Origin: Antedon bifida
Taxonomy: Eukaryota > Echinodermata > Crinoidea > Comatulida > Antedonidae
Reading direction: 5' to 3'
DNA: 64,000 bases
Assembly: GCA_963402885.1 (NCBI GenBank)
Contig: OY727103.1
Coordinates: 4,316,501 to 4,380,500 of the forward strand
Below, piece after piece: positions 21,775 to 59,863 of this stretch (positions are counted from its first letter, which is position 1; each line of letters starts with the position of its first letter). A model generated the notes under the pieces. The model was not told the origin of the DNA, ran no database searches, and saw nothing but the letters and a program-made list of their open reading frames with translations. Both the position numbers and the translations under genes were made by a program.

Positions 21775-24700
21775 CACAATAAACAGAATAACGTTTACCA
21801 AAAGATAATATTATCTAAACTATCTTCCTACTTTTATTTATTCAAAATAGACCATGGATATGCACAAATTATTGAACTTTATAACACACCCTAATGAAAC
21901 ACATTGTTGTTGTTACTTACGAATTCATTATAATTACTGAGGTTGAAGCGTAGATATGGATAATCTCTTTCATAGTTGGATATTTTTTTCTCATACTCTT
22001 CCTCAAAACATCACCCTTTCTATAAAATGTAAAACAACCATGCTTGTTCAACCAGTCATCCTTTATATTTAATAATTTCTATAATTTGGAAAAAAATAAT
22101 ATCTCATATAAGTTATCGGTTTCATAATATCTCTTATGGTGTAATGGAGTCATATTTTCTCGTAATGTTGGCCTATTCTTACGCATATTCATACGGTATA
22201 GGTATCGATGATAAAGTAGTGCTATGTAGAGTAATATGCTTAAATTCTTTCCACTATGAAATGAAATACATGTGTGTAACGTGACGATATTTTGTTCATG
22301 TCAGTTAGTTTCGACAAAACGCAAGTTTTTTTTTATGTAAACACACTAGGCCTAAACGTAAAGTCGTTTAACTGATCGTAACCATTATCGAAGACACAAG
22401 TGAAGTCTTTGGATTGCATTGCAAACGATAGGACACTGGTTCAGTAATTAATTTTACCATTACCTAGAAAAATATATTTTGACCTACCTGTAATATTTGA
22501 TGATCGCGTGGTGATGGTATTTGTAAATCGAGAAGCACTGATGTCATGTGCAAGCTTTTCTTTTCTTCTATACTTTTCGTCATCTCTTGATCTTCTTGGA
22601 TAAAATGTTCTAGCCTCTCAATAGCTTCAGTTTGTAGCTGATCATGCTCAAACATACCATATATTGCACAGTTTCTCAAAGCCTGAATACGAAGTAAAAA
22701 TGATTGTTATTTCCTTTAAACATGACAGAAATGATCGGTACAGAATCAATATAAATACATTTCTTTTTCTTTTTTTAAACTTTTGATATCCTCGGTTAAA
22801 CCGTCTTAAGGGAGTGTTTAAAGGCAATACAAAATTCCTTCCAACCTACTACTGTAAATTAATTTAGGAAGGAATATTTAAAAATGTAGTGCCTTTATAC
22901 ACTCCCTCAATCTATGGAGAACTAGAAAGTCCTTTTTTGTAAATAGCATTCATATGTACAATTCTAAGGCTCTGTCTACACTATCAAACTATATGTGAAA
23001 ACAAATTTGATGTACCCATATATTATAGACATGATGATGTCATATCACTACCATATTTGAGAACATCACACTTTTTTTGTCAAACTTGTTTGATAGTGTA
23101 GAAAAAGCTCATTGCTGTAATTTTTGTTTCAAATTTTTAATCGTTTCAACAGTATTCTACATGGCATATGCCATTTTTGGAATCTGCATTTTTAACAGTA
23201 TCTTAACATAGGTCTATAAATAGTATTTTAACACTGCCTTTTGCAATTTGATGTATTTTTATTGTCTTAATTATGCCAAGCAAAATGATATTCCATTTTA
23301 ATGTGGACCAATAACATTTCTTGAATCTTGAAATAAAATTATAATAACTCAATGTCTACTGTAGACACACTTAAACAAAGATATTTTTAAACATTTATAA
23401 CATATATCATTTTCTACCGTTACCTCAGACTTCTTATGAAGGCATGTTAGCCAATCTGAAGGTTTCAAAAGCCGTGCCTCTAAGTCCATCAAAGATATTC
23501 CACTTTGCGTTCGTTCACATTTCTCAAGCACATCTATGAATGTCGTACGGTGTTTCCTGTAAAAGCAAAATAAATATTAAATACTACGCAGTATATACCA
23601 TGAGTAATTGTTTGTGGATTACCCTTGATGTATATCTTTATTGAGATAATCATAATCATTCTAATCGACTAATGATTAAATATAACAACGGTAATTTTTG
23701 ATAATTTTATGAATAATGATTTGGTGAGTTGATGGCGATTACGACGAATTTGAATGAAAATGTTGGCAATGGTAATAAAGTTGACAAACATTGAGATCGA
23801 TAGTAGGTAATGATGAAAAATAGGATAGGCCTACTGTATATCATGAGGAACATAAATAATCATGGCATTCTAAAACGTTTTTCATTATACCTTTGAAACT
23901 CCAGCATATTCTGTTGAAAACACATGTTGGCGCGATATTTAACAATCGGCTTAAAAGAACCTTCTTTTAACCGATTATTTAATTCAGTAAAGTATACAAC
24001 GCTGTCTCTTCGATTAGATTCTAAAACACTGTCAAAACTTAGAAGAGAATAAAGAGGTTTTAGAATTTGTATTGAATTTCACAATTTCTTAAAATTAATA
24101 CGGATTATGCATAATATTTGATTCTACTACTCTCTACTACCGCATTAAAGTAATTGTATACATGTATTACAGAATAATGTCTTAATTGAAAAAAAAAGCA
24201 GTCCGTGATATAGGAAACTAGACAGTTCTAATACACATTTATAAAATGAATACCTTTCAATCATGTCTTTGACTTCAGTAACATTACGATAGAGATGGTG
24301 CTTCTCTCCTTCTTCAAGAATTTTATTAAAGGCTGCATCATTGATGTATAATTCATTGAGTTTTGAAAGACTTTTAATATTCTTCTTGTTCAGATCGGCA
24401 ATATCGAATAATATCTTTAAAAATGAATGAATACAATTGAATAGTCATAATCTTGTGTTTAGCGTTTAATATCGAATGGAAGATAAAATATAGATGGATT
24501 ATATAAATAGTTGATATAATCCATTATTCTCTAATACTCCTATTCGATTAGACCAGGATAGTAACCAATTTGATATTTTAAAATAGTAAATAAAAAAAAT
24601 CAAACGGACCTTTACTTCATGATCATTTTGCTCTAGGGATAAAAAATAGAAAATAAAGTTATTTAAAACCATGCAACACGTTTCTAAGATATATACTTTT

Positions 24701-33679: not shown

Positions 33680-33774
33680 TTCGAGTTAGTATTAAAGTAC
33701 CTTGAAAACCGATCACTCAATCAATCGTCTTCAATAGGTGGACGATGGGTGACGATGCAAATGTTGTTCCTAGC

Positions 33775-34421: not shown

Positions 34422-34918
34422 GGTATACATACTGTGTACATATTAGGTATACATACTGTGTACATATTAGGTATACATACTGTGTACATATTAGGTATAC
34501 ATACTGTGTACAAGTATACATACTGTGTACATATTAGGTATACATACTGTGTACACGTATAAATACTGTGTACATATTAGGTATACATACTGTGTACACG
34601 TATAAATACTGTGTACATATTAGGTATACATACTGTGTACATATTAGGTATACATACTGTGTACATATTAGGTATACATACTGTGTACATATTAGGTATA
34701 CATACTGTGTACATATTAGGTATACATACTGTGTACATATTAGGTATACATACTGTGTACATATTAGGTATACATACTGTGTACATATTAGGTATACATA
34801 CTGTGTACATATTAGGTATACATACTGTGTACATATTAAGTATACATACTGTGTAAATATTAGGTATACATACTGTGTACATATTAGGTATACATACTGT
34901 GTACATATTAAGTATACA
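34422..34918. repeat. 24-bp minisatellite array 1 (about 20 copies)
   Basis: Unit GTATACATACTGTGTACATATTAG, containing two six-base palindromes (GTATAC and TGTACA). A few units are shortened (GTGTACACGTATAAATAC). As 24 is a multiple of three, several frames on both strands stay open; these are not genes. Confidence 0.97.
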
Positions 34919-35575
34919 GTATCTTTGCTTGTTCTATTTAAGAAACAGCTGTAGATGCAAAATTCGAATAACTGGGGATACACAAACACGATGAAGACCA
35001 CAATCAAAATTGAAGGAGAAATAGAAAGAACAAAAAAACTATAATAACTAGAACCAATCTACAGTATTAACAGCATTAAACTCTCTATACAAAAACCCAA
35101 AAGGTTATAACTGTATGTATACAGACTATAAACAAAATTACCATTCAATAGCATGACACGACAAAGAATACCATAAATAAAATGCATGGAATGTAACAAT
35201 CAAAAGACCAGTGACGTATTGCGGTCGGAAACAAATGTATTTGGCATAACCCCCCAACTCTCCCTATAATGGCTGGAGTCTCCCGATATTTTTAGTCACT
35301 TCCCGATCTCCCGATAAAATGCAATCTAATAAAATAACACTAAAAAGTGTCTAAAGTATCCTTCACAATCGTCGTCAAAGGTGGACGGTGCAAATGTTGT
35401 TTATATCCCTATTTTCGAATTTAAATATACTGAAAATCTTTTTTTTCTTTTATTGCAATAAACAATGGCCTCCGGCCCATTTCACATAATAAAATCTATA
35501 TTAATTATTATGTTGATTGCAAGACAATGTCGGTGAACTAGTCCAGTCTTTTCCATCCGCCATTTTAAATATTAA

Positions 35576-37078
35576 GGTATACATACTGTGTACATATTAG
35601 GTATACATACTGTGTACATATTAGGTATACATACTGTGTACATATTAGGTATACATACTGTGTACATATTAGGTATACATACTGTGTAGGCCTACATATT
35701 AGGTATACATACTGTGTACATATTAGGTATACATACTGTGTACATATTAGGTATACATACTGTGTACATATTAGGTATAAATACTGTGTACATATTAGGT
35801 ATACATACTGTGTACATATTAAGTATACATACTGTGTACATATTAAGTATACATACTGTGTACATATTAAGTATACATACTGTGTACATATTAGGTATAC
35901 ATACTGTGTACATATTAGGTATACATACTGTGTACACATTAGGTATACATACTGTGTACATATTAAGTATACATACTGTGTACATATTAGGTATACATAC
36001 TGTGTACATATTAGGTATACATACTGTGTACATATTAGGTATACATACTGTGTACATATTAAGTATACATACTGTGTACATATTAAGTATACATACTGTG
36101 TACATATTAAGTATACATACTGTGTACATATTAGGTATACATACTGTGTACATATTAGGTATACATACTGTGTACATATTAGGTATACATACTGTGTACA
36201 TATTAGGTATACATACTGTGTACATATTAGGTATACATACTGTGTACATATTAGGTATACATACTGTGTACATATTAGGTATACATACTGTGTACATATT
36301 AAGTATACATACTGTGTACATATTAGGTATACATACTGTGTACATATTAGGTATACATACTGTGTACATATTAGGTATACATACTGTGTACATATTAGGT
36401 ATACATACTGTGTACATATTAAGTATACATACTGTGTACATATTAGGTATACATACTGTGTACATATTAGGTATACATACTGTGTACATATTAGGTATAC
36501 ATACTGTGTACATATTAAGTATACATACTGTGTACATATTAGGTATACATACTGTGTACATATTAAGTATACATACTGTGTACATATTAGGTATACATAC
36601 TGTGTACATATTAGGTATACATACTGTGTACATATTAGGTATACATACTGTGTACATATTAAGTATACATACTGTGTACATATTAGGTATACATACTGTG
36701 TACATATTAGGTATACATACTGTGTACAAGTATACATACTGTGTACATATTAGGTATACATACTGTGTACATATTAGGTATACATACTGTGTACATATTA
36801 GGTATACATACTGTGTACATATTAAGTATACATACTGTGTACATATTAGGTATACATACTGTGTACAAGTATACATACTGTGTACATATTAGGTATACAT
36901 ACTGTGTACATATTAGGTATACATACTGTGTACATATTAGGTATACATACTGTGTACATATTAGGTATACATACTGTGTACATATTAGGTATACATACTG
37001 TGTACATATTAGGTATACATACTGTGTACATATTAGGTATACATACTGTGTACATATTAAGTATATTAAGTATACAGT
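35576..37078. repeat. 24-bp minisatellite array 2 (about 62 copies) with higher-order pattern
   Basis: Same unit as array 1. A G-to-A variant (ATTAAG) marks some units; groups of three consecutive variants at 35819-35867 and 36059-36107 are exactly 240 bp apart, so blocks of about ten units were amplified. Single insertions (GTAGGCC at about 35687) and shortened units (GTACAAGTATAC) also occur. Confidence 0.97.
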
Positions 37079-37500
37079 ATCTTTGCTTGTTCTATTTAAG
37101 AAACAGCTGTAGATGCAAAATTCGAATAACTGGGGATACACAAACACGATGAAGACCACAATCAAAATTGAAGGAAAAATAGAAAGAAGAAAAAAACTAT
37201 AATAACTAGAACCAATCTACAGTATTAACAGCATTAAACTCTCTATACAAAAACCCAAAAGGTTATAACTGTATGTATACAGACTATAAACAAAATTACC
37301 ATTCAATGGCATGACACGACAAAGAATACCATAAATAAAATGCATGGAATGTAACAATCAAAAGACCAGTGACGTATTGCGGTCGGAAACAAATGTATTT
37401 GGCAAAAAACCCCCAACTCTCCCTAAATGGTGGGAGTCTCCCGAAATTTGTATTCACTTCCCGATCTCCCGATAAAATGCAATTCCCCTCCGATATTTTG

Positions 37501-38009
37501 GATAAACACAAATATCCCGATATTTCTAATTTATACTAGGCCTATACCTATATAAAGAGGGAAAAAAGAAAATGCTAATATCGATGTTTATAAAAAAACA
37601 ATCATGCATTGTTTGAAAATTGAAATGATTTGGTATTATATTTTCTGACAAACCCGTAATACCTTTTAAGATTTTTAATAGCGCCCTTTATGTAGGCCTA
37701 CGATGTTTTATTCTAGCGCCCCCTATAGTTTGGACATGATTTCGTAGTGTATGTTGATATATACAGTTATTAATAGTTTGCTGACAAAAGAGGAGAAGGT
37801 AAAGAGAGTGCGCATAAACAGTTTTTTATAAATTGTTTTTATGTATAATACAAATCCTAAACAAAATCGAAACAAACTAGTTGATTTACGGACACTAACA
37901 ATTGCAAAATTCGGTGTCTAATAACGCCGTGTATTAGTAATAATATTGGTTTTGTTGTTGCAGTTCTAAATTACAATAATACTAAATAATTTAATTGAAA
38001 ATTATTTTC
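37501..38009. other. Intergenic sequence between the arrays and gene B
   Basis: AT-rich with two TAGGCCTA words and GCGCCCYTATA repeats at about 37680 and 37715; no supported gene. It may contain the end of the gene B transcript. Confidence 0.5.
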
Positions 38010-38460
38010 AATTATGCTAATTACTTTTATTATACGGACCAATCTTAAGGTACCCGTCATTACGCTAATTATTCTTATTATACGGACCAATCTTAAGGTA
38101 CTCATCATTATGCTAATTATTCTTATTATACGGACCAATCTAAAGGTACCTGTCATTATGCTAATTATTCTTATTATACGGACCAATCTTAAGGTACCCG
38201 TCATTATGCTAATTATTCTTATTATACGGACCAATCTTAAGGTACCCGTCATTATGCTAATTATTCTTATTATACGGACCAATCTTAAGGTACTCATCAT
38301 TATGCTAATTATTCTTATTATACGGACCAATCTTAAGGTACTCATCATTATGCTAATTATTCTTATTATACGGACCAATCTTAAGGTACTCATCATTATG
38401 CTAATTATTCTTATTATACGGAGCAATCGTCATCATGCTCATTATTCTTATTATACGGAG
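38010..38460. repeat. 48-bp minisatellite at the 3' end of gene B, overlapping its last codons
   Basis: Units such as AATTATTCTTATTATACGG plus a CCAATCTTAAGGTACYC part recur every 48 bp (AATCTTAAGG at 38041, 38089 and on), about nine copies. The rightmost units are coding: on the minus strand they encode the C-terminal APYNKNNEHDDDCSV of gene B, and the stop TAA is formed in the second, shortened unit. Confidence 0.92.
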
Positions 38461-41400
38461 CAACCTTAACGTACCCGCCGTCATCAAACTCAATGTCAGA
38501 ACAAATGTAGTCATAATGGGAGGTTCGGTCTAATACGCTGTAAGATGTTTCCACATTACCAACACGTATTTCTTGATACAAGTCTGTGTCCTTAGGTACA
38601 ATACATGCATTCTGATTCATCAGCAGCCTACTGAGAGGCCTAAAAGGAAATGATAATCGTTTTGATTTATCTTTAGACGATTTCCTGGGGTTTCTGTTAG
38701 TTGTGTCACTGTCTTTCTTTCTAACTTGGATGGCATCGTTGCTAAAATAAAATAAAATTAACAATTATTTACAAAAAACAAGATACGAATACAATTCAAT
38801 AAAATAACATCTTGGAGATACAAAAAAAATATTTTACTTATAGCTTGATTTGTCGTCTTCATATTCATTTTCTCTTTCTTTTTTACACCGAAGTTTAATT
38901 TTCTGGCCATAGCTATATTGTTCATCCCTTGGTGATCCTAAAATGTTGCTTGGAAACCACCCAGACATTCCGTCACGTTGACGTATACCTCTTACCCAAA
39001 CTAAATGAAAATATAACAGGAATTATGTAAATCATGAGTTCATTTTCACTTAATGTAAATCATTCATTTCTAAATCACTGTATGTAGGCATGTTTTTGTT
39101 GTGTTCTCCAAATTATACATTAATAAACATTCCTCGGTGGAATGCAAGAACACAAGTTCCAGTCAAATATTTACTTTCGTTCTTGACTTGTCGATTTTCA
39201 AGAAGTTCCACAAAGTCATTCACATCCAGTTGAAGTTCGTCGTCTCTGTTAGTGACAAAAACCGTTGATACAATATGTATTGGTCGACCTATAAACAAAA
39301 ACCTTCTGATTGAGTAATTGCTTAATATTTAATTTATTTAGATCTAGATTTAAAGATCAATTTGTGACACACTACTTGTTTTGCCGTTCGATAGAAACAT
39401 GTACAGTAGTATTATTAACATAGGATTATGCTTACAGGCCTACTAAAAATTAAAAATTAGATATGCTTTTTTCATCTCGAATTTGGCTACTCATAATAGT
39501 ACTCTTTAATGTATATTATGAGACATTTGATTTTAATATATAAATTCAAATAAATAATTGCCTACTGTAATCATCATATTTTCCAGATTCACCAGTAGCC
39601 ACGACGAGTGCTGCTTTCCATTCTTTGAAGTCTTTCCTAAACATAAAGTAAATGAAGTGGTTATTACAAAAAAACTTAACAAACACACAAGTACCGATTG
39701 CTTAAGATCTCATAATTTTATCTCGCACTTCGATTTGTAAATGTTTTGCATTATGTTTCTAAGCATGCGCAATTTCCTACTCGAAGGCTGCTGCGTGTGG
39801 CGCGTCAAATAAAAACGAAAGATTCTGACAGACACTTACTCAATTTGGTCACTTCCTGAGGTAAATCCAAGAAGGTATTCCACTGGCTGATAATCGTCTA
39901 CGAGGCCTACTTTCTTATATATCCACAACTTAAACAAAAAACCTCTTTCAGGCATCCAACCTTTTCTGTTTCTTGCGTCAACAACTTCAATATCAGTATA
40001 ATTTCGATCATAGCAATTACAAAATTGTTTCCTGAAACAATCAACTTTTAATTGATTTAATTTGAATGGTGTAGACAAGACTTTTTTTTCTTTAAATTAA
40101 ACTACCATTGTTAGTCCAAAACTTGAATGACAAAGTGTACAAATACTATCAGCAAAGACCAATAAGGAAATCAAATATAGCCATTTTATAGGTCAACGCG
40201 TTTAGTTTTAAAACGAAATCTTTAAAAAATGGTAAGTTTAAATAAAAAAGTTACTTACGATGTCAAAATAATGACTGAGGCTGAAGCGTAAATATGAATC
40301 TCTTTTTGTGAATATTTCTTTCTAATATTCTTCAGTGGGTTTCCGTCGTCAGTCTTTCTCTTGGTATATAACGTAAAACAACCGTGCTTTTTTAACCAAT
40401 CATCTTTTATTTGTGATAGTTTCTATAGTTTAGAAAGAGAATAACATAAGGAGCTTTGTATCCGTTTTGTACGTCATTTAACTAGCTTACGTAGGAGTAG
40501 GCTTATCAAAATAAAAAACAAGGCCATATGCATGGCTGCAGTCGCGTGCTCAAGTTAGTGTTTACCGACCGATCAACCGACCGACATAGTGAGCTGTAGA
40601 GACTAAAAATAATGGTAGCTAAGTGCGTAACTTTTTTTACAGAGAGAAAGGCATCAACATTAATATGCACAAATTAACAATCAATTAAAATCAAATAGAA
40701 TAATATTAACAGTTAACAGTAATTTAGTGTTTCTTAAATATGGAAAAGAGGCTGTTTTCGGTTATTTCAAGCTATTTAGTACACTATAACATTATATACT
40801 GACGGACCTATTCATGTATTTTTGGCGACATCCTAAATATGTTGAGACATACATTATCATAATATGTAAATCAAGTAACTTGGGATATATACAAAAAGAA
40901 TCACCCGAACAAAAAGCACTGAGATTTTTTAACTTACGTATAATAATTGACGATCTTTTGATACCAGTTCAGTTGGTAAGTTGAGCAGCACTGACGTCAT
41001 GTGTAAGTCTTTTTCTAAACTTTTCGTGAGTTCTTGTTCTTCTTGAATAAGTTTCTCAAGCATATGAATTGTATTTATTTGCAACCGATGGTTAGGCTGG
41101 TCGGTTGGACCTTTAAATGCTTTGTTTAGAGCCTAAACAAATCAATCAATTAATCAACCGTTTATTTTCGTTTACTTTTATATAAACATAACATACAAAT
41201 GGATAGTGCAGGAACAATAAATTGAATCAGCAGATAGTGACGCTACTATAATTATGATAATATCATATGTTTCTTTAATATTGAAAAGATGTCAATTTTT
41301 TCTGGTATTTCAAACAACATAATAAAGTTATACCTTAGCTGCTCTGCTTCTGACTGACTATAACCCTAACCGATCGATATACAGTGGGAATATATATAAA

Positions 41401-44400: not shown

Positions 44401-47400
44401 AGTTTGTAACTCCATTGTTCACAGTCTTGAATGATCGATTCTCCCTCTATGGTCGTCGGCTCAGCAACTAGAGCGCCATGGATACTCTAAAATGATTTAC
44501 AAAATCATAATGTTAATAATATTCAATAACAACTAACGGCGCAGATTCGTTTTTAATAGTTAGGGGTGGTGACGTATAAAAAGGAAATACTTTGCGAGCG
44601 AAGTCCCCTGGAAGCGGTAATTTATAAGTCGTTTCAATCAATTTCTGAGCAGATAAAAATTCCGTCCGCAAGAATACAATTATTTTGGGTTACGCACTTC
44701 CTGTTTATGCGCCACTAGTTATACTCACGCAAAATCTATTCTTCTTAGAAACTGTATTTTCTGAAATCACATACGATACGCGTGTCATAGAAGTCTTACT
44801 TTCTATTTCATTTCAACAATTAATGATTTTGCTGTTGAAAAGCCCCTATTAAAAAATATGGGGGTGTGGGAGTCCCCTAGGATCTGCGCTGGTGATAACA
44901 ACTATATATTATTAAGATTAATAATGCTAAACCAGTTTAGAAATTTAAATAAAATGAAGGATAATTATCAGATAATTAGGCGTCAGGCAATGCTGTTTTC
45001 AGACGGGATATTTAGCATTCGAATTACTTGTACTATGCTCTGAAGTTTTTTCAGCCAATTAGCTTGTTTCATAAGAATGGTTTGGATATCTGTAAACGTC
45101 AAAGTATGTTGTGTACTGTCTTCATCCTCTTGATGTATGAAGCTTCCTGCACTATCGATGCAATGTCTGTAATAAGAAAACATGACGACTAATAGAGAAG
45201 AGTTAGTTCAAAATTACGTGATGACACGCACTGATGCATGCCGTCACAGACAACCATACTTGAATGAAATATATACTTTTATGAATTTTGCAGGTGAATG
45301 AATTTGGATAACGTCATAATATAAGAACTGGCAAGTGCTGCCTGGATGGACAGGAATAAAAGAAATACAAGAAAAGGAGACAGGATGGAGTCTGAATAAG
45401 AGTAGAAAACAAGGTAGCTTGGTAGAGATATAAACAATTTTGGAATGAAACTAAAAAACAGCTTAAATGGTGGTTAATATTGAAACTTAAATTTTGGTAG
45501 TCAATGGAATAATTTTACCGATCTGGGAGTATGTTCCTAATGTTAAGTCAAAAAGGTTTTGTGGTTTTAAGTTGTAATTCCCAGTGGTTTTCTTTGTCTT
45601 TGCGAGTTTTGTCGCTCCATTTGACATCGTGGTCTATAGCAATAACTCTGACATTTTCAATCGAGTGACCAGCTGAATTAAAATGTTCGGCTACAGGTTG
45701 ATCAAGCTTTAATGTTTTGATAGCTGATCTGTGTTGTGTCATTCTCATACGGAGAGTGTTTTTTGTTTCCTCGACGTAATGTTTGCCACAAATATTACAG
45801 TATATGAGATAAATGACGTTTTTGGTTAGACAATTAATTGAAAAATGCGGCCAGTTTGGTTACTCTTAAATTTTTCAGTAGAATCAACCAATGAACAAGT
45901 TTTGCAAGATTTGCCGCAAAGGTGACTGTCCAAATGTTGGCTGTCATGAGAGTTAATTTCACTCTTAAATTTGGATCTGACTAATATATCACGAAGGTTG
46001 GGGGTCTACGAATTGCAATAATGGGTGGTTCCGGAAAAACAGTCCCGAGACGTTCTGTGGACTGTAGAATGGGCATATGTTTCTCAATAATAGCCCGTAA
46101 TGGAGGCAACCTCGGGTGATAGGTTGTGACCAATGGCATTCTGGTCGAATTTGGCTGACGTGGTTTGTACGTCAGTGTTTGACATCGAGGAATATCTCTT
46201 GCTTTCTTTATAGCAGTTTCGATGTATTCCTTTTTGTAATTTCTATTCCGGAGATGTCCGGTTAGTTCTTCGGTGTACGATTCTGAAAATCTAAATCTGA
46301 AGAACATATACGTCTGATACGTAATGCTTGACTGTACGGTATGTTTTTAGTACAGTGTCGGGGATGACAACTGCTAGGGAGCAGGTACATATTTTTATCC
46401 GTGGGTTTACTGAATAAGTCAGTTTTGAGTGTACCATTTTCTATGGTCACTATAGTGTCCAAATAATCATCGCTACTAGTGGATTTGGTAGCTGTAAATT
46501 TGATAGTTGGGTGGGCTGAATTAATATTGAGAAGAAAAGATTCCAAATTATCTTCACCATGGGTCCAGATCATGAAGATGTCGTCAATGTATCTAAACCA
46601 AACAAGTGGTTTATTAGGTTGGAGGGACAGAAAATTGGCCTCAAATTCTCCCATAAATACATTTGCAAAAGATGGCGCCATTTTTGTGCCCATCGCTGTA
46701 CCATGAATTTAAAGGTAATGGTCATTTCCAAAAATAAAATTGTTGTTGGTTAAAATCAACATGACCAGTTCTCGTAAATGAGCTTTAGTAGGCGTTTTGC
46801 CTGGAATTTGTTTGTAATTTAAAATACATGCGTCGGGATATTAGTATACAACGATGAAACATCTAATATAGCCAGAACAGAATTATTAGGTAGATTTTGA
46901 ATTTGGTTAATTTTGCGGATAAAGTCCGTGGCGGAGCCCTGAATGTATGAAGGGAGATCAGTCAAATATGGTCTAAGTAAATCATCCACATATTCAGAAA
47001 TTTTCTTTGTAGCAGTGCCATTTTATGTTATATTGATATTGTATTTTTGGTAGTTAAACTGCTCACGAACCAGCAGTAAAGTTGAAAGTGGGGTCAGTGG
47101 TAGGCATAAGTTAGGTCTTTAACAATCAATTCCTATGTCAAAGCAATTGCCATAGGCCATACTATAGAACATAACATGTCTAAAGTTACGGAATTATGTT
47201 ACCATATTAATACATTAATACATTTTATTTTTAACACGTTTGTTCTTGCAAAATTCAACAATAATATGACTTAAACATAGCAAACGCCGTACGTGTATAC
47301 AGTAGGCCTACCAAGCATGTGACAAAATTATATTAAAACCAATACATTTATAAAGAAATTACCTAATTGATTCAATCATGTTCAATTGGATATGAGAATA

Positions 47401-50400: not shown

Positions 50401-51342
50401 TTTGTTGTAGGCTTATGGCCATAATATTTAAATATTCAACGATTTATTGAAGATGAAATAATGAAAAACATTACCGTTGTCGATCGAAGAATTTTTAAAC
50501 CTTCTTATGTAATCTAGCACTTGATCGATATCGTAACGTAGTTCTCTTGCTGTGCTCCAACACTTTTCAATCATTGGACGCAATGCAACCGGAAAGTCGT
50601 GTGGAATCTCCAGTAAAGTCCCCCTACCTACATTCATCATCATTTCGAATTCTTCTAAACCTTCAAATGGTCCCTCACAGGTCCATAATTCCCATAGAAC
50701 AACACACAGTGAATAAATGTCGGACTTTTGACATACTAACTTGGGATTTTTTATTACTTCAGGTGCCGCCCAGCGTAGTGTACAGCCTGCAACTGTCCCC
50801 ATAATAGTACTTGTACCGTGTACTTGTTTAGAAATTCCAAAATCACACAACTTAAGTACATTCATCCCGTTTTCCTTATCATCACTCAACAAACAGTTCA
50901 AAGATTTGATGTCTTTGTGAATTATGTACATCTTATGCAAGTACTGAACAGCAGAAGCGATGTCAATACTCCACTGAACAAATTGCGAGTTTGGTAATCG
51001 CGATGGCAGTCTAGCATCTTTTCTTTCCTGTCTAAATCTAGCTAAAAACTGACCCAAGTTACCACCAGATGCTAATTCTAAAACAATACCTACTCTCAGT
51101 CCTTCATTAAGTAGACCGTAGAATTTTATAATATTTTTGTGATCAAGATCTTTAAGAATGTCAACCTCTTTATAAACGATCTTCTCATACATCTTCACGG
51201 CTACTTCAGTTTTCTTGTTATCCGTTTTTCGTGTGACTTTATAGACAGCCGAAGTTGAACCTGTTCCAAGCTCAATGGTTGGATTTCCGAAGTAAATTTC
51301 ATCGCGCGGAATAAAAATATTCTCATTTGATAACATATCCAT
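38414..51342 (-). CDS. Kinase-DH-PH-DH-PH-SH3 signalling protein, paralogue B (intact, 1411 aa)
   Basis: Twenty-four exons give 4236 nt with every phase consistent: 50475-51342, 49932-50321, 49588-49630, 49265-49329, 48683-48720, 48325-48485, 47363-47506, 45028-45166, 44274-44486, 43983-44137, 43554-43736, 43261-43337, 43000-43071, 42827-42849, 42178-42335, 41788-41925, 41419-41560, 40938-41132, 40259-40422, 39840-40031, 39566-39636, 39175-39288, 38838-39000, 38414-38741. Domains: kinase 15-285 (GTGSTSAV loop, Lys50, HKD 142-144, DFG 167-169, AAPE); Glu/Ser-rich linker 290-468; DH1 470-687; PH1 688-825 (DCIHKKD, TKLDP, FEDR); DH2 858-1068; PH2 1069-1210 (CYDRNYTDIE); SH3 1211-1268; tail KSSKDKSKRLSFPF. 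The kinase resembles ZAK/MLTK, a MAP3K; DH-PH modules normally load GTP on Rho GTPases. The DH core near SKPQEWLTCLY departs from active GEFs. A Penelope fragment sits in the 45167-47362 intron. Confidence 0.88.
45530..47110 (-). mobile_element. Penelope-like retroelement fragment (RT and GIY-YIG endonuclease), decayed
   Basis: On the minus strand a reverse-transcriptase segment (TKMAPSFANVFMGEFE, catalytic FRYIDDIFMIW) is followed by a C-terminal linker and a GIY-YIG-type endonuclease portion (RMTQHRSAIKTLKLDQPVA, AEHFNSAGHS). Upstream, about 46830-47040 reads as the earlier RT part (LPSYIQGSATDF, SLYTNIPT). The domain order is that of Penelope-like elements. The frame is broken at about 46700-46830 and again before 45980, and the 5' end is missing, so it is non-functional. 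It occupies an intron of gene B, in the same orientation. Confidence 0.88.
47945..48200. repeat. Inverted pair of Penelope-type terminal sequences with hammerhead-like core
   Basis: Two nearly identical arms of about 110 bp face each other around a short AGTCCAGGAAACTTGG centre. Each arm carries CTGAGGACGATC, a loop, then GATCGAAACGTCG, an order resembling the CUGANGA...GAAAC core of hammerhead ribozymes known from Penelope-like element termini. It lies in the gene B intron between exons 47363-47506 and 48325-48485, separate from the RT fragment. Ribozyme identity is inferred, not shown. Confidence 0.6.
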
Positions 51343-51433
51343 TTCGCATTTGGAAAAAGTAACACAACAGTATCACCAGCGTACAACTCAGAAAGAGGTC
51401 TGTCTGATTAGTGGAAATGTATTATTCGTTGTA

Positions 51434-51790: not shown

Positions 51791-52549
51791 AATAGCGAAA
51801 CACTTAGGCCTAAACCATAGCAAGATGCCTTAAGAACTGGTAAGAAATATTGAACATAATGTCTTCATAGATGGAATGAGATTGGCTAAACTACTTAAAA
51901 TTATAAGATAAAGTCAATTATTTATTTTTTTTAAACGAGTGAAAAGTGTGTTAACTTTCACAACAGCTTTATGCGTGTACTAGGGAGAAAGCCTAAGGTA
52001 TTAATAAGCAGTTTCTCAATATTGAAGCCACGAAAACGGACATTCTTGTGTATATTATTTGATTTGTCGTAAGTTTACAATAACATTTCCTTTTAAAACA
52101 ATTATAATTTTTAAACTCATGTACGAGACTAAAAGTTTCATCGTCTAATATTTTACAATAGATGGAAAGATATAGACCTAAGCAATACATTACATTAGGC
52201 CTATGGTCTTATTTATATTTCTGATTAGGTGCTAAAATAAGTTCATGAATTTTTATACAGGATTTTGAAGTATGTATACATGTTTTCAAAATCAAAGCTT
52301 ACGTCATGCTCTGCTAGTCATATTTATAGATACGCACAAAATGTGAACAGATATCATAGAACGCACAATAAAATAGCATAAAACGCACAATCTAACCCAA
52401 ATTGTAGTGTTCTTTTGATTTTTTTAGGGAAATTTTGGGATTTGCGTAATGGTCTGATGATCATGACGATTGGATTGCTACAGGATACACAATCTTCCGT
52501 CACGTAATAACATATTCCACGGAATACACAAACGAGGAATAAGCAGTAG

Positions 52550-55500
52550 TTATTCCAAGCCTAATTCCTTGTACTTGGTCCACAACCAGTCATGATATTT
52601 ATTCAGGAAATTGTCATTTGGATGAACCTAAAAATAAATTACAACCAATACAATTATTATGTATGTAATATAACATTATGTTAACTTGAATCATTTAAAT
52701 ATCTACTATAAAGCTCTGTCTACGCTATCAAACTAGTTTGACCAAAAATATGGTAGTAATATGCCCAAATATGGTAGTGATATGCCAAAATATCGTAGTG
52801 ATATGACATCATCATGTCCATAAATACATTTTTTGTCCCATAAAATGTGATAGTGTAGACAGAGCTTTATGCCTATTATTAAATCAGCGATGAGCTATAC
52901 GTAGAATACGACAAAATGCAAGATTTCACAATACCTCTTTCCATTTTCCAAGACAAAATATTTTATATGAGTCATTACCATATTTCCCAATACCATGTAA
53001 TTCATCAGCATTTTCCCAGTCTTTCTCTAAAAATTCATCTACATAAAAAAATGTATTTAAAGAGCTCATTTCAATTATTTCGCCATTTCATAAACAAATA
53101 ATAATAATATATTAGGCCTCCTTTAACATGATCATCAAAAGAATAAATCAAAATGTTGTTCCAAGTTCCGAAATACTAAGAATTATTCGTAGTCTATACA
53201 AAATAGGTCATCGACCTATACTTTTGTAACAACGACATCATTTCTAGAATAACCACACTGTACAGGAAGTCGTGTCAATAAATACGGCAATTAAACTACA
53301 GAACAGTGGACCTACAGTTCGTTAAGTCAATGCATCTTATTTATCTGTTTCTAGATGTAAACATATTTATTGTAAATCCATACATTAACATTTTTGCAAC
53401 AGAAGGCAAATATTGGATCATAACCCGTATGTAGCAGAATGGTTGTGTTAAACCGATTAAAAAAATATCATACCAGAAAATCTGATGATCATTTTCGCGC
53501 GTTTTTTATGTAACCCAAGATGCTGAAGAAGGTTCGCAATCGGCTGCCAGTCGGCTTTCCGCGTTACGTCAGCAGTAGGATACAATTCAAAGAATTGCCA
53601 TAGTATAGGAATAGCCACTGCTCCTATACAAATCACAAAAAAACATTCAGTTAGACCTGGGGAAAGAAAATGAATACAGTACAATAGTATATCCAGCAGA
53701 TTTAGGCGTACAATACAGTACTTGGATGGCATGATAAACTCACTAAAAACCCTGATAAACACGGTTTTACCTCTTGTTTTATTAAGAAACATTGTAGCAA
53801 TCAGCAACTTCCACGGGTCATGAAATAAAGATTCTTGTACAAGATTATATGGTGACTTTGGTGGTGTCCATAAAACTCGTCTATCTAAATTAGTTTCAAT
53901 TAACGTATTATTTTCCATTGTATAACTTGTCATCGGTCTCTTTGCCGACTCAGTATTCTCGACTTTACATGAAATTGAAATATCTTGTGACATCTGCAAT
54001 TTATCAGAATTTAGTTCCTCTTGCGAATCTTTAGATACCAGTTCAGACTGCAACCGATCCGGTATTAGCTCTTCTTGCAATCCATCAGACTTTAGCTCTA
54101 TTTGTAATCGAGAATTTGGCTCCGTTTGTAATCCGTCAGAGTCTAGCTGTTGCTGCAGTCTATCAGACATTAGCTCCTTCTGTAATCGAGAATTTGCCTC
54201 CGTTTGCAATCCATCAGAGTCTAGCTCTTGCTGCAATCCATCAGACTTTAGCTCTTTCTGTAATCGACAATTTGGCTTCGTTAGCAATCCATCAGAGTCT
54301 TGCTGTTCCTGCAATCTATTAGACTTTAACTCCAATTCATAAGACTTTAGCTCCTTCTGCAAGACATCTTCACTTTGTGATATTCTTCTCTTCCTGAGAC
54401 AGAATTTTTGTTTAGGTTTAGCAGCGTTCTCACGACATGAAGCTGTTTTTGATACATCTTGTGCACAATACGTCTGCACATTGTCAGTCTTTCGTGTCAG
54501 TCTTTTCTCTTTAGACTTCATGGTACCATGTGACATTTGTCTCTTCCTGAGATTTCTGAAGTATGGACTTGATTTGATTGGCATCTTGGAGCCGGGACCT
54601 ACAATAAAAGAAACTCAAATATGTTTTTATTAATTAAGTTTCAACAAGATTGATTAATAACCCAGTCTTCTTCCCCAAATTGACTCACTCTTGTGCGCGC
54701 GTAAATAATACAAACAAAATCCACATTATGGACATTTCAAACTTTTTATTGAAAAAACATATAAAAATTGACAAAACATAAAACCTATACTATGATTGTT
54801 TATGAAGTTGAATAAAATAACTGAAAAGACGAGTTATTATTAATTAATTAATAATTAAATAAGAGACTCTGCTCATTTTAATTGTGAAGCTTAAATGTCT
54901 TTAGCGTAAAGTGCGTCTAAAAGATTATCTGTTTCAATCTTAAATGCACAACTTTTAGGCAGAAATATTTAGCAACCACTAAGAAGCCAAAATAATCTCA
55001 TTAAATTAGAGCAGCATTGTCTTAAAATTTATCAAAGTACTAAATTACAAATAAAGTTTGTAAGTAAGTAAAGAAAAAACAAGTTGATTGAAATTCATTT
55101 TAACTTTGGGAGAAACGGTGTAAATGCCGCAGTAATATTATGCAAGTTGCAATAGAAATATTGTACCAAAATAGTTTAGATAAAGTTCCTTAAAATAACT
55201 TATCTACAAGTCCAACTACACATCACCATTAAAGTAGTTATGTTATAGAAATGTTGCAGACAGGTTTGTTGTTCTTTACCATTACAAAAGTTGTTGAGAA
55301 TGTTTTGATGAGATGTGATCAATTCTGGAGAGAGAAGTACAGTACAGTAGAAGGGTCATAGTTCATAGGACTTGTTATGGCAGGTGGAGTTGGTGTTCAA
55401 GGATTAATGTTCTCAGAACTTTAGCATCAATTTGTTTTTAAATCCTGATAGTCAATATTAGTCTTAGTCTTGGACACCCTATTTTGTTTAGGCCTAGGGA

Positions 55501-58500
55501 TTTGCATAGCCTATGAAGCAAAGCATCTGCGAATGCCTGGAAACCAATTCATGTGGTAATAGCTCCATTAAATTTATGGTTGTCCTAAATCTATTAAAGA
55601 TATTATAAACATGTTCATATGTAAACATGTTGATAGTTAAACATTTTAATACGTAAACATGTTTAAATACTTAAACACGTTTATATAGTTAAACATGTTT
55701 ATACTTAACTTGTGTTAAAAAAAGTTTCTGCAGTAAAATACAAACAAACGAACACAAATAAAAAATTCTTTTAAAGTGAAACAGAGAAAGCTGCTAAAAT
55801 CACTACAGTACTGGTTCTACATAAAGTCGTAAATTGAGGAGAATTTATTAGATTGATTCTTTTAATTACTGAATTGATTCAACAATGCATTTTAGTCTCC
55901 TTTTAATTTATTTTTTCCAAGGAGATTTATTTAGCCTCTAGATAAAATATAATTTTCTTTTTGTTACAATAAATGATTTAAAATGGTAATAAATTAGACT
56001 TGCATCAATTTTCATAGCAAGTTTCAACCACAGACATTGCATGGTCAATTATTAAACTTATTGTTTTCTGTAAGTTGTCAGGAAATGGATTTCAAAGAAA
56101 TCATTATATAGATAATAATTATTATTATACTGTACAGTTTTAGTTGAAAATATGATTATCAATTTCTTTTTATAAGTCAGACTTGTGCATAATAATGTTC
56201 ACCCACATAATAGTTTCCTTATTACTAAAAGCCACACACATAGTGATAGACTTTGAAAACAGTAGAACCCTTATATAGGGGTACCCTTTAAGAGGACCCC
56301 TTCCTGTGAAACAAATGAGAGGAAACATGTTGTTTAACACTATAACCAACCTCTATTCAGTACACATTTTGTTGGGTCCTCAAGGTGTCCCCTTAACAGG
56401 GGTTCTACTGTAACGAATTATATGATTTTCACCACAAATTGGTTAAAAATATAATCATTATTTGGAGACCTAAATACAAATATGTTACACTATTAAGTTC
56501 TGTCTACACTATCAAACTTTATGTGATAAACAAATGTTATGTGCACATATATGGACATGATGATGTCATATCACTTCCATATTTGAGCATATCACTACCA
56601 TATTTGGGCACATCCCCTTTTTTTTTGTCAAACCAGTTTGATAGTGTAAACAGAGCTTTACATTACAAATACTCTATAATGAAACTAATAACTAAAATAA
56701 ATCTATTATTACAGTAGAATCAAGAATTAAAATCTAATATTAAGGCTTTAGAAAATACTAGAGATTTGGTCAGTGTCACTATTTTTCCTTTCTGGCTCGC
56801 TTTGGTGTACTTGCTTGCTCTTCTGCCTCTCCATCATCCCCCCTACCTTTAAAATTAATCTTCACAAGCAATTTTTTCATTGATTGTTCTTTATTATACT
56901 TTTTACTGCTCTTATCGGTTGACGGTTGAGCAACTTTGCGTATATTCTTACCTGCGGGAGACTTGTTCGGTTTTTGTTTAGTCTTTTTTTCTGGTGTTGA
57001 TTTTGTCTTACTTGTGCTTTTCCTCTTTGCCGGTGTCTTTTTTTTCGGTGTTGCCGGTTTGGCTTTTGTGGTAGCTTTATTTCCGGTTCCACGAACAGTA
57101 AAGTCAAAATCATCCGCATCATGTTCAGATTTATTTACTTTAAAGTAAGCTGCTAGTTCGTTCCGGGAACGGAAACGTCTATTGGTTGGGCTAAACGAAC
57201 AAAAATATAAATAAAAGAAACAATATTATATTTGATTATTAATTAAGGGCTTACTATACCAGAGGTATAATCAAGATTACTGTACTAATATACAAGTTTT
57301 TTGGAGGTGTGGCACTTTGCAGCGAACAGATTCTCAGAGCTTCTTCTGACATTTGTCCCTCGTTCAGAACACAGAAATGTGTCCTCCTAAAGGGGTGGGG
57401 GGGGGGGGGTGGGAGGGGGGTTGGTTCTACTGTAATAGCAAAATAAATATCATTACCTTATCAAATACACATCAAACTTTCCTGCCGATCTTCCGGTCAG
57501 TCTCTGAGTAACTTTTCTTTTCCATCCTTCTGGTAACCTATTATCCTCCTCAAGAACACCAGCTTCATCCTTTTTCCCATCATCCTCTTTGTCCTCATCA
57601 CCCTCATTGGTTAACTCTTTATTTTCATCTTTCGAACTACTGTTTCCTTTCTCCTCTTCTTCTGTCTCTTTAGCTTCATCCTGAGAACTTACTTCCTCTT
57701 TCTGTGCTTCTTCGTCTTTTGTGTCTTTCTTTGAATCACATCTGTTGCCGCCATCTTCCGACTCTGAAGTGTTCTGCGATTCTGCTTCCGTTTTATCAGC
57801 TGCTTTGATGCCATTGTCAGATTCACTATCATTGTTGTCTGGTGACTGGGAAGGAGTCAATGGTGTTATCTTGCAAACTTCTCCAATACTTTCATCAGCA
57901 CTTGAAGAGCTGAAAATAATTAAGACAATTTATAATTTAATCAAAATAATCATCATTTGAGTAAAAAAACACTTTTTTGAAAAATGAATCCTAGTTAGGA
58001 AGCTTTTAAAAATAATATTATTAATATTAGTCTTCTATGCTATTCCTAGTAGTAATGTGCATAAATTCCTATCTATTTTATCTAGGCCTAGACTATCTAC
58101 CTAGGCCTATCTATATTATATGCCGGCCCAGCTAGCTAGCCTAGGCCTAACTAGGCCTATACTTACTAGTTAGGCTAGTCTATTCTATATATTAACTGTA
58201 CTAGGCCTACTACTAGGCCTAGCTTAGCATAGTCATCTAGCTAGCCTACCTAGCTAGCACAGTATCTATAGCTAACTAGGCCTTATGGTCTGGACCAATT
58301 GCACTAAGGCCTATACTAGTCCAAGGCGATTTACTGCTCGGCTTGACGGCTGCTACTCGGGCACGACCGCGAGGTTTCAGTGCAGCAGGTATCACGACCA
58401 CCAGGCCTAGGATGGATCTTCGGCAAGTTCTATTAGTATTTGTCTAAAACTCTCATACACAGGCGAATATTGAATTAATCTACCAATTAACCAAATGTAA

Positions 58501-58570
58501 TATTGCATCCTTGAATAAAGATGACACTGTACCTTCGTCTAGAATTCGTAGAATCTTGATTTTCCTCCAT
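52550..58570 (-). CDS. MBD4: MBD4, methyl-CpG-binding thymine/uracil DNA glycosylase (629 aa, fully spliced form)
   Basis: MBD4 removes T or U mispaired with G at methylated CpG sites in the nucleus by base-excision repair. Exons 58533-58570, 57457-57909, 56952-57190, 53771-54598, 53474-53623, 52935-53038 and 52550-52627 total 1890 nt in one frame. The N-terminus is acidic; the MBD spans exons 2-3 ([26 protein letters not shown], then [20 protein letters not shown]). Exon 4 holds a Lys-rich segment and about ten degenerate [11 protein letters not shown]-type repeats, probably coiled coil or disordered. The HhH-GPD glycosylase follows: [20 protein letters not shown], the helix-hairpin-helix [12 protein letters not shown], and catalytic Asp609 in [14 protein letters not shown] (human D560). 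Human MBD4 is 580 aa. All junctions are GT/AG. Confidence 0.92.
52710..52869. mobile_element. MITE family A, copy 3
   Basis: Best-preserved copy: termini AAAGCTCTGTCTACGCTATC and GATAGTGTAGACAGAGCTTT, with three internal ATGGTAGTGATATG-like repeats. It lies in the last intron of the MBD4 gene. Confidence 0.88.
55607..55706. promoter_or_regulatory. Cluster of AAACATGTT palindromic sites in the MBD gene
   Basis: Within 100 bp there are four AAACATGTT cores plus one AAACACGTTT, some fitting RRRCWWGYYY (a p53-family half-site) and also containing TAAACA forkhead-like words. It lies in the long intron (54599-56951) of the spliced form. A regulatory role is conjecture; it may be a decayed simple repeat. 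Confidence 0.3.
56260..56410. mobile_element. Short inverted-repeat element, family C
   Basis: Termini CAGTAGAACCC and GGGTTCTACTG-like (AGGGGTTCTACTG) with a second inner pair (CCCTTTAAGAGG / CCTTAACAGGGG); about 150 bp. A degenerate relative is at 239-389, and one end appears near 57422 (GGTTCTACTG). Confidence 0.65.
56494..56659. mobile_element. MITE family A, copy 4
   Basis: Termini AAGTTCTGTCTACACTATC and GATAGTGTAAACAGAGCTT enclose the usual CATGATGATGTCATATCAC core. It lies in the MBD gene just downstream of the short-form stop codon. Confidence 0.85.
56779..58570 (-). CDS. MeCP2-like short product of the same locus (300 aa, donor at 56951 not used)
   Basis: Exons 58533-58570 and 57457-57909 are shared with the MBD4 form; exon 3 continues past the internal donor (GCAG/GTAAGA at 56952/56951) to a TAG at 56779-56781, giving 903 nt in frame. 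The result is an acidic N-terminus, an MBD whose [21 protein letters not shown] and DADDFDFTV resemble vertebrate MeCP2 more than MBD4, a Lys/Pro/Thr-rich AT-hook-like segment, then [10 protein letters not shown], close to the KLLVKMPF stretch of MeCP2, and a basic end TPKRARKEK. The extension stays open for 57 codons and is not repeat-derived, which argues it is translated. It would be a nuclear methyl-DNA reader without glycosylase. Whether the transcript exists is inferred. Confidence 0.65.
57391..57420 (+). other. G-tract (possible quadruplex former) in the intron splitting the MBD
   Basis: Thirty bases nearly all G (runs of 4 or more, broken by single T or A) on the plus strand; the transcribed RNA carries the C-rich complement about 30 nt downstream of the donor of exon 57457-57909. 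Confidence 0.6.
58080..58410. repeat. AGGCCTAG palindrome cluster 3, in intron 1 of the MBD gene
   Basis: Dense TAGGCCTA, CTAGCTAGC and TAGGCCTAG words as at 8157-8610, placed between coding exon 1 (58533-58570) and exon 2 (57457-57909). Confidence 0.85.
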
Positions 58571-59863
58571 AATTACTTACTATCTTTGGACGATTAAAAA
58601 AAAACGCGAATCAATTGAGCGCCCTCATTTGTTTCTGCAAAATTCATTACGTCATCGTAGTCTAGTCGTCAATTAGCCTACTATACTATTAATGCTGTGT
58701 ACCAGTAATATGTTTCGTTTTTAAATCAGGAAGTCTAATTTATTTTCCAGTAGGCCTAATAAAATGATAAATTAAATTTTTTAAACACAAAATGTATAGG
58801 CCAATAAAACTTAATACAACTCATAATTAAGGCTTCAAAGAAATAAGTGTGACTACACGTAATTCCCGAACTCCTATGCGAATACCCTTTTTTCAAGTTG
58901 TTATAACTCGTGGAAAATTATTGTCTTCTCCCCAACAACACCTCTCAAAATCACCAATTTGTGACTTATTGTCATTTAAATATATAATGTGGTTGTTGAA
59001 TTGGACATTCTTAAAGGGTAATAGGCCGTTACCGCGGTGATACGTAACATAATCATGTTCTAGACCTCTTGAACATTATGTAGACATTCTGTGACGTCAG
59101 TGTTGACTGAAGTCTGTACAGACTTTGTGTTTAGAAAAACATAGGGCCTACAACATTTTATGTAACAAACTACAGCTATGGCGTGGAACGTCATTGTATA
59201 AAATGCATGTGGGAATTAGGAGTTGGGAGCAAAAAGTAATATATATATAACAGAAACAACAAATCCCGGTGCGCGTGTACATACGACGCGTCGTGACGTT
59301 TACTCCCATTTCCCTCACATCATCATGCGTCACGAAAATTTGATTTGGGAACCACGTTAACTGTGTATTCAAGTTTGCTTCCTAAGCTTAAAAGTTGGAA
59401 ACGGAATCATTCCCACTATTCCCATCGACTAGTGCATACATAATATTCAAAATCCTTTTTATTTCAAACTGGCCAGCCTAGCGTGATTAGTTAATGCTCC
59501 GCTACGGTACTAAACGTAGGCCTATCTAGCTATTCCGAATATTTTTTCTTTCATTTTATAAATTGACACAGAAACCAAACAAGTAGAAAAGAAGTCATTG
59601 ACAAAGAAGAAGATTAACATGACAAAGAGCACTTTAAAAAGCATTGAACCCACATAGTGTATTCTTTTCGAGAAAAGTATTTAATCTTCAGGCAAGCGGA
59701 ACCAGATTTTAGAACAAAATCCAATTGTTAGGGAGAGTCGAGTACACATAATACGTTAGTAAAGTGAAGACTGACGTTAGGACTAAATCGAAGCTTCTTT
59801 TACAATAAGCGATTGAGAGTGAATGTTAATAAGATATATAGGGGTACAAGAATACGGGGAGAC
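58571..59863. promoter_or_regulatory. Head-to-head intergenic region of the MBD gene and the secreted-protein gene
   Basis: About 1.3 kb separates the two divergent start codons. GAGCGCCCTCATTTG and GACGTCAGTGTTGAC (a CRE-like TGACGTCA relative) and several CG dinucleotides (GTGCGCGTGTAC, ACGACGCGTCGTGACG) occur, but no distinct core promoter can be assigned by eye. No other gene seen. Confidence 0.4.

What the first reader, a model, noticed from the sequence alone, without database searches (positions are those of the whole stretch)
52550..58570. One locus can encode both MBD4 and a MeCP2-like protein through a single optional donor
Seen: exon 3 contains a strong GCAG/GTAAGA donor that joins in frame to the glycosylase exons (629 aa). 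If it is ignored, the frame stays open 57 more codons to a TAG and includes KKLLVKINF and a basic tail. Known: vertebrate MeCP2 has a closely related MBD, the same intron position inside the MBD (from memory), and a KLLVKMPF stretch. Inference: this may preserve the pre-duplication state from which vertebrate MBD4 and MECP2 separated.
Basis: partly seen in the sequence, partly recalled or inferred. Interest (0 to 1): 0.85.

Follow-up and report, generated by a model that had tools for sequence, protein, structure and literature searches.

The report
MBD4 gene with hidden MeCP2-like ending
In this animal genome one gene makes the DNA-repair enzyme MBD4, and one of its exons runs on past its splice site into a coding-like ending that resembles part of the brain protein MeCP2, a hint at how MeCP2 may have split off in vertebrates, though no RNA evidence was at hand.

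Summary
The anatomy is real. Seven minus-strand exons give a 629-aa MBD4; the glycosylase matches MBD4 chains (228 bits), while the MBD is closer to MeCP2 (62% identity) than to MBD4 (48%). Ignoring the exon 3 donor gives 300 aa ending at TAG 56781-56779. The open frame alone means little, but the 56 extra codons score coding-like (0.43) where those after the five other donors do not (-0.29 to -0.58), none of 604 open stretches elsewhere reaches them, and the coding-to-intron change lies at the TAG or four codons past it. Synonymous codon choice gives no support. The MeCP2 resemblance (KLLVK, then a basic end) is modest: 14/2000 composition-corrected shuffles reach it, 164/2000 by plain scoring, and tblastn misses it. 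AT-hook and NCoR-binding motifs are absent. A second in-phase donor would put LLVK into a 664-aa MBD4 instead. No transcript, animal relative or whole genome was available. That vertebrate Mbd4 and MeCP2 form one group with invertebrate Mbd4 is published (PMC8330077, passages).

The parts
58533..58570 (-). Exon 1 coding part (ATG at 58570), donor AAG|GTACAG, phase 2
57457..57909 (-). Exon 2: acidic N-terminal part and first half of the MBD; donor in phase 2 inside the MBD (LI-S-P)
56952..57190 (-). Exon 3 up to donor 1 (CAG|GTAAGA): second half of the MBD and basic linker
56782..56949 (-). Extension of exon 3: 56 in-frame sense codons with coding-like codon make-up
56851..56877 (-). KKLLVKINF, compared with GKLLVKMPF of MeCP2 (recalled)
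56846..56847 (-). Border of donor 2 (AAG|GTAGGG): in phase with exon 4, would give a 664-aa MBD4 with LLVK
   Evidence: second best of 315 GT sites
56779..56781 (-). TAG stop of the 300-aa form; coding-to-intron change lies here or four codons past it
55926..55931 (-). First AATAAA past the TAG (848 nt), possible poly(A) signal inside intron 3
   Evidence: a six-letter match only
53771..54598 (-). Exon 4: MBD4 linker with repeats and first part of the glycosylase domain
53474..53623 (-). Exon 5: glycosylase domain
52935..53038 (-). Exon 6: glycosylase domain, [15 protein letters not shown] with the catalytic Asp (recalled as Asp560 of human MBD4)
52550..52627 (-). Exon 7: end of the glycosylase domain and TAA stop of the 629-aa form

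Best explanation
An invertebrate-type MBD4 gene whose exon 3 is composite. If donor 1 is used, exon 3 joins exons 4-7 and the cell makes MBD4, a methyl-CpG-binding glycosylase that repairs deaminated methylcytosine. If donor 1 is passed over and the RNA is cleaved inside intron 3, exon 3 becomes the last exon and the cell makes a 300-aa protein without glycosylase: an MBD close to that of MeCP2, a basic linker, LLVKINF and a basic end, able to read methylated CpG but not to excise bases. Shown: gene model, frames, domain identities, coding-like make-up of the extension. Inferred: that this form is transcribed and polyadenylated in intron 3, that it acts as a reader, and that its tail shares ancestry with MeCP2.
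For: Complete seven-exon gene; MBD4 glycosylase; MBD closer to MeCP2. Extension codon score 0.43 against intron windows with mean -0.41, sd 0.17, maximum -0.02 (n = 400), and -0.31, -0.30, -0.58, -0.29, -0.46 after the five other donors; with a model from two kinase genes 0.32 against an intron maximum of 0.06. Point of change at the last codon before the TAG, or four codons past it with the kinase model. 0 of 604 open 56-codon stretches elsewhere in the window reach 0.43. The last 22 codons, which the 664-aa form would not use, carry the strongest signal: 0.85 against an intron maximum of 0.34, n = 474. Order of LLVK and basic end as in MeCP2: blastp E 0.019, 35/3000 shuffles, 14/2000 and, with cheap gaps, 1/2000 composition-corrected shuffles.
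Against: No transcript data at all. Donor 1 is the best of 315 GT sites in the gene, so splicing is likely the rule. The first AATAAA lies 848 nt past the TAG (the one past the normal stop lies 624 nt away, so this is not decisive). The first 34 codons of the extension score 0.16, inside the intron range (maximum 0.22). Synonymous codon choice shows nothing: 112 of 400 intron windows do as well. The five other introns are not independent controls: four of them are in the intron training set. Plain alignment to MeCP2: 164/2000 shuffles do as well; tblastn misses the tail. A transcript that kept intron 3 but spliced the later introns would be open to nonsense-mediated decay (general knowledge).
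Confidence: 0.5

Rival explanations
1. Alternative 5' splice site: donor 2 (56847/56846) is used in some transcripts and adds 35 residues with [10 protein letters not shown] to a full 664-aa MBD4. LLVK would belong to an MBD4 linker and no glycosylase-free product would exist.
For: Donor 2 is in phase with exon 4 and the second best of 315 GT sites.
Against: The coding-like signal goes on past donor 2 and is strongest there (0.85 for the last 22 codons). The tail does not match the recalled human MBD4 linker better than shuffles (414/2000 and 1125/2000).
Confidence: 0.2
2. Chance: the start of intron 3 is a purine-rich stretch that happens to be open and lysine-rich next to a lysine-rich exon, and KLLVK is a coincidence.
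For: 56-codon open runs occur at 20 of 3144 intron start points and intron 4 is open as well. The coding signal is amino-acid make-up only. Plain alignment to MeCP2 is near chance (164/2000). Another LLVKI occurs in the window, at 46743 on the plus strand.
Against: Intron 4 scores -0.58 while the extension scores 0.43; 0 of 604 open stretches elsewhere reach it; the signal ends at or close to the stop with two models.
Confidence: 0.22
3. Relic: exon 3 once ended at the TAG, or reached further, and a new strong donor has since turned its end into intron; the stretch still looks coding but is no longer translated.
For: Very strong donor 1 in front of coding-like sequence.
Against: No stop has entered the 56 codons.
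Confidence: 0.08

Closest known systems
MBD4 (MED1), methyl-CpG-binding mismatch DNA glycosylase
   Same: MBD plus C-terminal glycosylase that aligns end to end with MBD4 chains (143 of 146 residues, 228 bits)
   Different: MBD closer to MeCP2's (62% against 48%); exon 3 runs on into an in-frame ending
MeCP2
   Same: MBD (75-85 bits in 11 chains listed as MeCP2 or its chicken counterpart); basic linker, KLLVK and a basic end in the same order; recalled: same phase-2 intron in the MBD and no later intron
   Different: No AT-hook core, no KKRK/IKKR, nothing like MeCP2 269-486; the gene also encodes a glycosylase
Invertebrate Mbd4-group genes (PMC8330077, passages)
   Same: A gene that groups with both vertebrate Mbd4 and MeCP2; duplication of the ancestral mbd4 gene in vertebrates is stated there
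   Different: That main text holds neither 'isoform' nor 'alternative splic', so a second ending is not discussed there

Membership tests
MBD4 | Methyl-CpG-binding domain | tested here: met
   PF01429, 64.8 bits, cut-off 21
MBD4 | C-terminal HhH-GPD glycosylase of the MBD4 type | tested here: met
   15 of 15 listed PDB sequences are MBD4, best 228 bits; the general Pfam model PF00730 is under its cut-off (20.4 against 26.2)
MBD4 | Thymine/uracil excision activity | not testable with these tools
   needs an enzyme assay; [11 protein letters not shown] stretch kept
MeCP2 (300-aa form) | MBD of the MeCP2/MBD4 group | tested here: met
MeCP2 (300-aa form) | KLLVK segment at the start of the repression domain | tested here: inconclusive
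MeCP2 (300-aa form) | AT-hook (GRP core) | tested here: not met
MeCP2 (300-aa form) | NCoR/SMRT-binding motif and C-terminal part | tested here: not met
   no KKRK or IKKR; tblastn of MeCP2 269-486 finds nothing in the window
Common ancestor state of MBD4 and MECP2 | Branches before the MBD4/MeCP2 split | tested here: inconclusive
   seven MBDs, 66 columns: order of window, MeCP2 and MBD4 open
Common ancestor state of MBD4 and MECP2 | Two transcript endings in use | not testable with these tools
   no RNA data
Common ancestor state of MBD4 and MECP2 | No separate MeCP2 gene in the genome | not testable with these tools
   no genome held; in the window the only other tblastn match to the MBD has E 3.7
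Common ancestor state of MBD4 and MECP2 | Tail conserved in other invertebrates | not testable with these tools
   collections at hand are viral or prokaryotic; scans empty

The most novel reading that the evidence does not exclude
The gene keeps the state before the vertebrate duplication: one locus, two endings, chosen at one donor. A repair enzyme arises when the donor is used, a methyl-CpG reader when it is skipped. After the duplication one copy kept the spliced form (MBD4); the other lost the 3' exons and lived on as the read-through form, whose long last exon became MECP2 exon 4. MeCP2 would then be a fixed splice form of a repair gene.
Probability: 0.25. Interest if true: 0.87.

Novelty: new variant of a known kind. 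Interest (0 to 1): 0.6.

Why it matters
MeCP2 is the Rett syndrome protein, and its nearest relative MBD4 is an enzyme; how a reader and an enzyme came from one gene is an open question. If invertebrate MBD4 genes already make a glycosylase-free MeCP2-like form, the origin of MeCP2 becomes a case of two splice forms parted by gene duplication, which could be tested at once in public RNA data from echinoderms, hemichordates, amphioxus and molluscs. If the tail proves noncoding, the idea is closed.

Tried and rejected
Open frame as evidence: set aside, since 20 of 3144 intron start points in this gene are open for 56 codons and intron 4 is open and in frame as well.

Plain alignment of the tail to MeCP2: the best match was the basic end, not LLVK, and 164/2000 tail shuffles and 109/2000 target shuffles did as well. 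LLVK as shared with the human MBD4 linker: not supported. SKKYNKE of the tail against SSKYNKE of MBD4: 900/2000 shuffles do as well.

Relatives: MBD plus tail, an MBD alignment and the glycosylase against viral contigs, the first two against GTDB genome contigs: none. These collections are viral or prokaryotic, so this says nothing about conservation in animals. Tail against PDB and Pfam: nothing up to E 10.

Neighbours: FANCI fragments and two protein kinases; neither is a neighbour of human MBD4 or MECP2 as I recall them. Only ten pieces of the window were scanned, so synteny was not tested in full.

Synonymous codon choice as a test of coding: no signal in the extension or in exon 3 itself. 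MBD tree: order unresolved. Bacterial-type promoter and terminator scan of 56700-57000: not applicable to an animal gene. Extension against the window by blastn: nothing better than E 0.22 inside the extension; a dispersed repeat starts about 110 bases past the TAG. Structure prediction was not run.

Literature: ten searches were answered. In the listings (titles and starts of abstracts; one search showed 40 of 882) I saw no report of a two-ended MBD4/MeCP2 gene. 'LLVKMPF' is in 0 papers, MBD4 + lancelet + MeCP2 in 0, MBD4 + MeCP2 + amphioxus in 6, of which I opened passages of two (PMC8330077, PMC5240623). The paper I thought most relevant (de Mendoza and others 2021, brain non-CpG methylation in vertebrates) is not held; I recall that it derives MeCP2 from the vertebrate genome duplication, and it may already discuss invertebrate isoforms.

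Full report
WHAT IS THERE. The minus strand from 58570 to 52550 holds a gene of seven coding exons with GT-AG borders and matching phases that gives 629 aa. Residues 134-197 are an MBD (Pfam 64.8 bits, cut-off 21). The last 146 residues match MBD4 glycosylase chains nearly end to end (best 228 bits, E 4e-67; 15 of 15 listed sequences are MBD4), although the general Pfam glycosylase model stays under its cut-off (20.4 against 26.2). The main product is MBD4.

THE MBD. In the PDB the best MeCP2 chain scores 85.2 bits, the best MBD4 chain 53.8, the best MBD2 chain 40.3; the MeCP2 constructs are longer, which explains part of the gap. Over the same 65 or so columns identity is 62% to MeCP2 and 48% to each of two MBD4 sequences. 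A tree of seven MBDs sets window, MeCP2 and MBD4 against MBD1/2/3 (100/100) but does not order the three. The likeness to MeCP2 may only mean that vertebrate MBD4 changed faster. PMC8330077 (passages) reports Mbd4-group genes in many animals, vertebrate Mbd4 and MeCP2 in one group with them, and duplication of the ancestral mbd4 gene in vertebrates; PMC5240623 (passages) instead says that invertebrates have only MBD2/3.

THE EXTENSION. Openness is worth little: 1.0% by simulation, 20 of 3144 intron start points, and intron 4 is open as well.

IS IT CODING? Codons were scored by log-odds of coding against intron, with exon 3 left out of the coding set, the extension and intron 4 left out of the intron set, and stops ignored. 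The extension scores 0.43; 400 intron windows of its length have mean -0.41, sd 0.17, maximum -0.02. The 56 codons after the other five donors score -0.31, -0.30, -0.58, -0.29 and -0.46; four of these introns were in the intron training set, and the stretch after exon 4 runs a few codons into exon 5. The best point of change from coding to intron along exon 3 and intron 3 is the last codon before the TAG. With a model trained only on two kinase frames of the window the extension scores 0.32 (intron maximum 0.06) and the change lies four codons past the TAG. None of 604 open 56-codon stretches elsewhere in the window (overlapping, sampled every 14 codons, 52400-58700 left out) reaches 0.43; the highest scores 0.34. 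Against: the first 34 codons score only 0.16 (intron 34-codon maximum 0.22, n = 449), the last 22 score 0.85 (intron maximum 0.34, n = 474). The signal is amino-acid make-up; choice among synonymous codons shows nothing (112 of 400 intron windows do as well). My reading: the extension is, or lately was, protein-coding up to its TAG.

IS THE TAIL MeCP2-LIKE? Plain BLOSUM62: score 41, from the basic end and not from LLVK; 164/2000 tail shuffles and 109/2000 target shuffles reach it, 0 of 864 open stretches of the window do. KLLVK is shared exactly: 640/20000 shuffles share some 5-mer, 9/20000 one with three or more hydrophobic residues. blastp with composition correction: E 0.019, with [14 protein letters not shown] and then [20 protein letters not shown] in the order of MeCP2; 35/3000 shuffles and 1 of 864 open stretches reach that E. 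Composition-corrected local alignment: 14/2000, and 1/2000 with cheap gaps; against the recalled MBD4 linker 414/2000 and 1125/2000. tblastn with a MeCP2 stretch of about 163-320 against the window does not list the tail at E up to 10. Several nulls were tried and the target came with the finding, so this is moderate support. LLVK lies 74 residues after DFTV here and 60 in MeCP2. The 300 aa hold no GRP, KKRK or IKKR, and MeCP2 269-486 matches nothing in the window.

HOW IT COULD WORK. One exon, three possible products: 629 aa (donor 1), 664 aa with LLVK (donor 2, in phase, second best GT site), 300 aa (no donor, RNA ending in intron 3). The strong signal beyond donor 2 favours the last as the reason for the extension. 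It needs cleavage in intron 3; the first AATAAA lies 848 nt past the TAG, against 624 nt past the normal stop. A transcript that kept intron 3 but spliced the later introns would be open to nonsense-mediated decay (general knowledge). The 300-aa form should bind methylated CpG, since the residues that contact the bases in MeCP2 (Arg111, Asp121, Tyr123, Arg133; numbering recalled) are the same here, but it could not excise bases.

EVOLUTION. The phase-2 intron inside the MBD sits where I recall it in both human MECP2 and MBD4, and I recall that MECP2 runs from there to its stop in one exon. If so, MECP2 has the shape of the read-through form and MBD4 that of the spliced form. This is the bold reading; nothing here excludes it and nothing proves it.

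VERDICT. Observation confirmed, interpretation partly supported. RNA data and relatives would decide; I could reach neither.

Noticed in passing
53624-53770 (minus): Intron 4 of MBD4 is 147 nt, open and in frame with exons 4 and 5, but scores noncoding-like (-0.58 over 56 codons from 53768); taken as chance and used as a control.
   Followed up: yes
54076-54333: About 3.3 copies of a 78-nt tandem repeat in exon 4 make a repeated LQ-EL-SDGLQ linker in MBD4.
   Followed up: no
52705-52870 and 56489-56670; also 4926-4996 and 22965-23109: Copies of a dispersed repeat with inverted ends (AAAGCTCTGTCTACACTATCAAACT), like a small transposable element, in introns 3 and 6 of the gene and elsewhere.
   Followed up: no
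32819-33685 and 50428-51372 (minus): Two protein kinase frames that look like close paralogues (Pfam PF07714, 179 and 171.5 bits).
   Followed up: no
about 731-898 and 2008-2175 (minus); 359-697 weaker: Pieces of a FANCI gene (FANCI_HD2 64 bits, FANCI_S2 55 bits; the 359-697 piece is just under its cut-off).
   Followed up: no
6604-7230; 34534-37216; 37971-38469: Long open frames made of short repeats, seen in the ORF list; surely not genes.
   Followed up: no
46262-46708 (minus): Frame with a weak reverse transcriptase match (RVT_1 18 bits, under its cut-off of 29.6).
   Followed up: no
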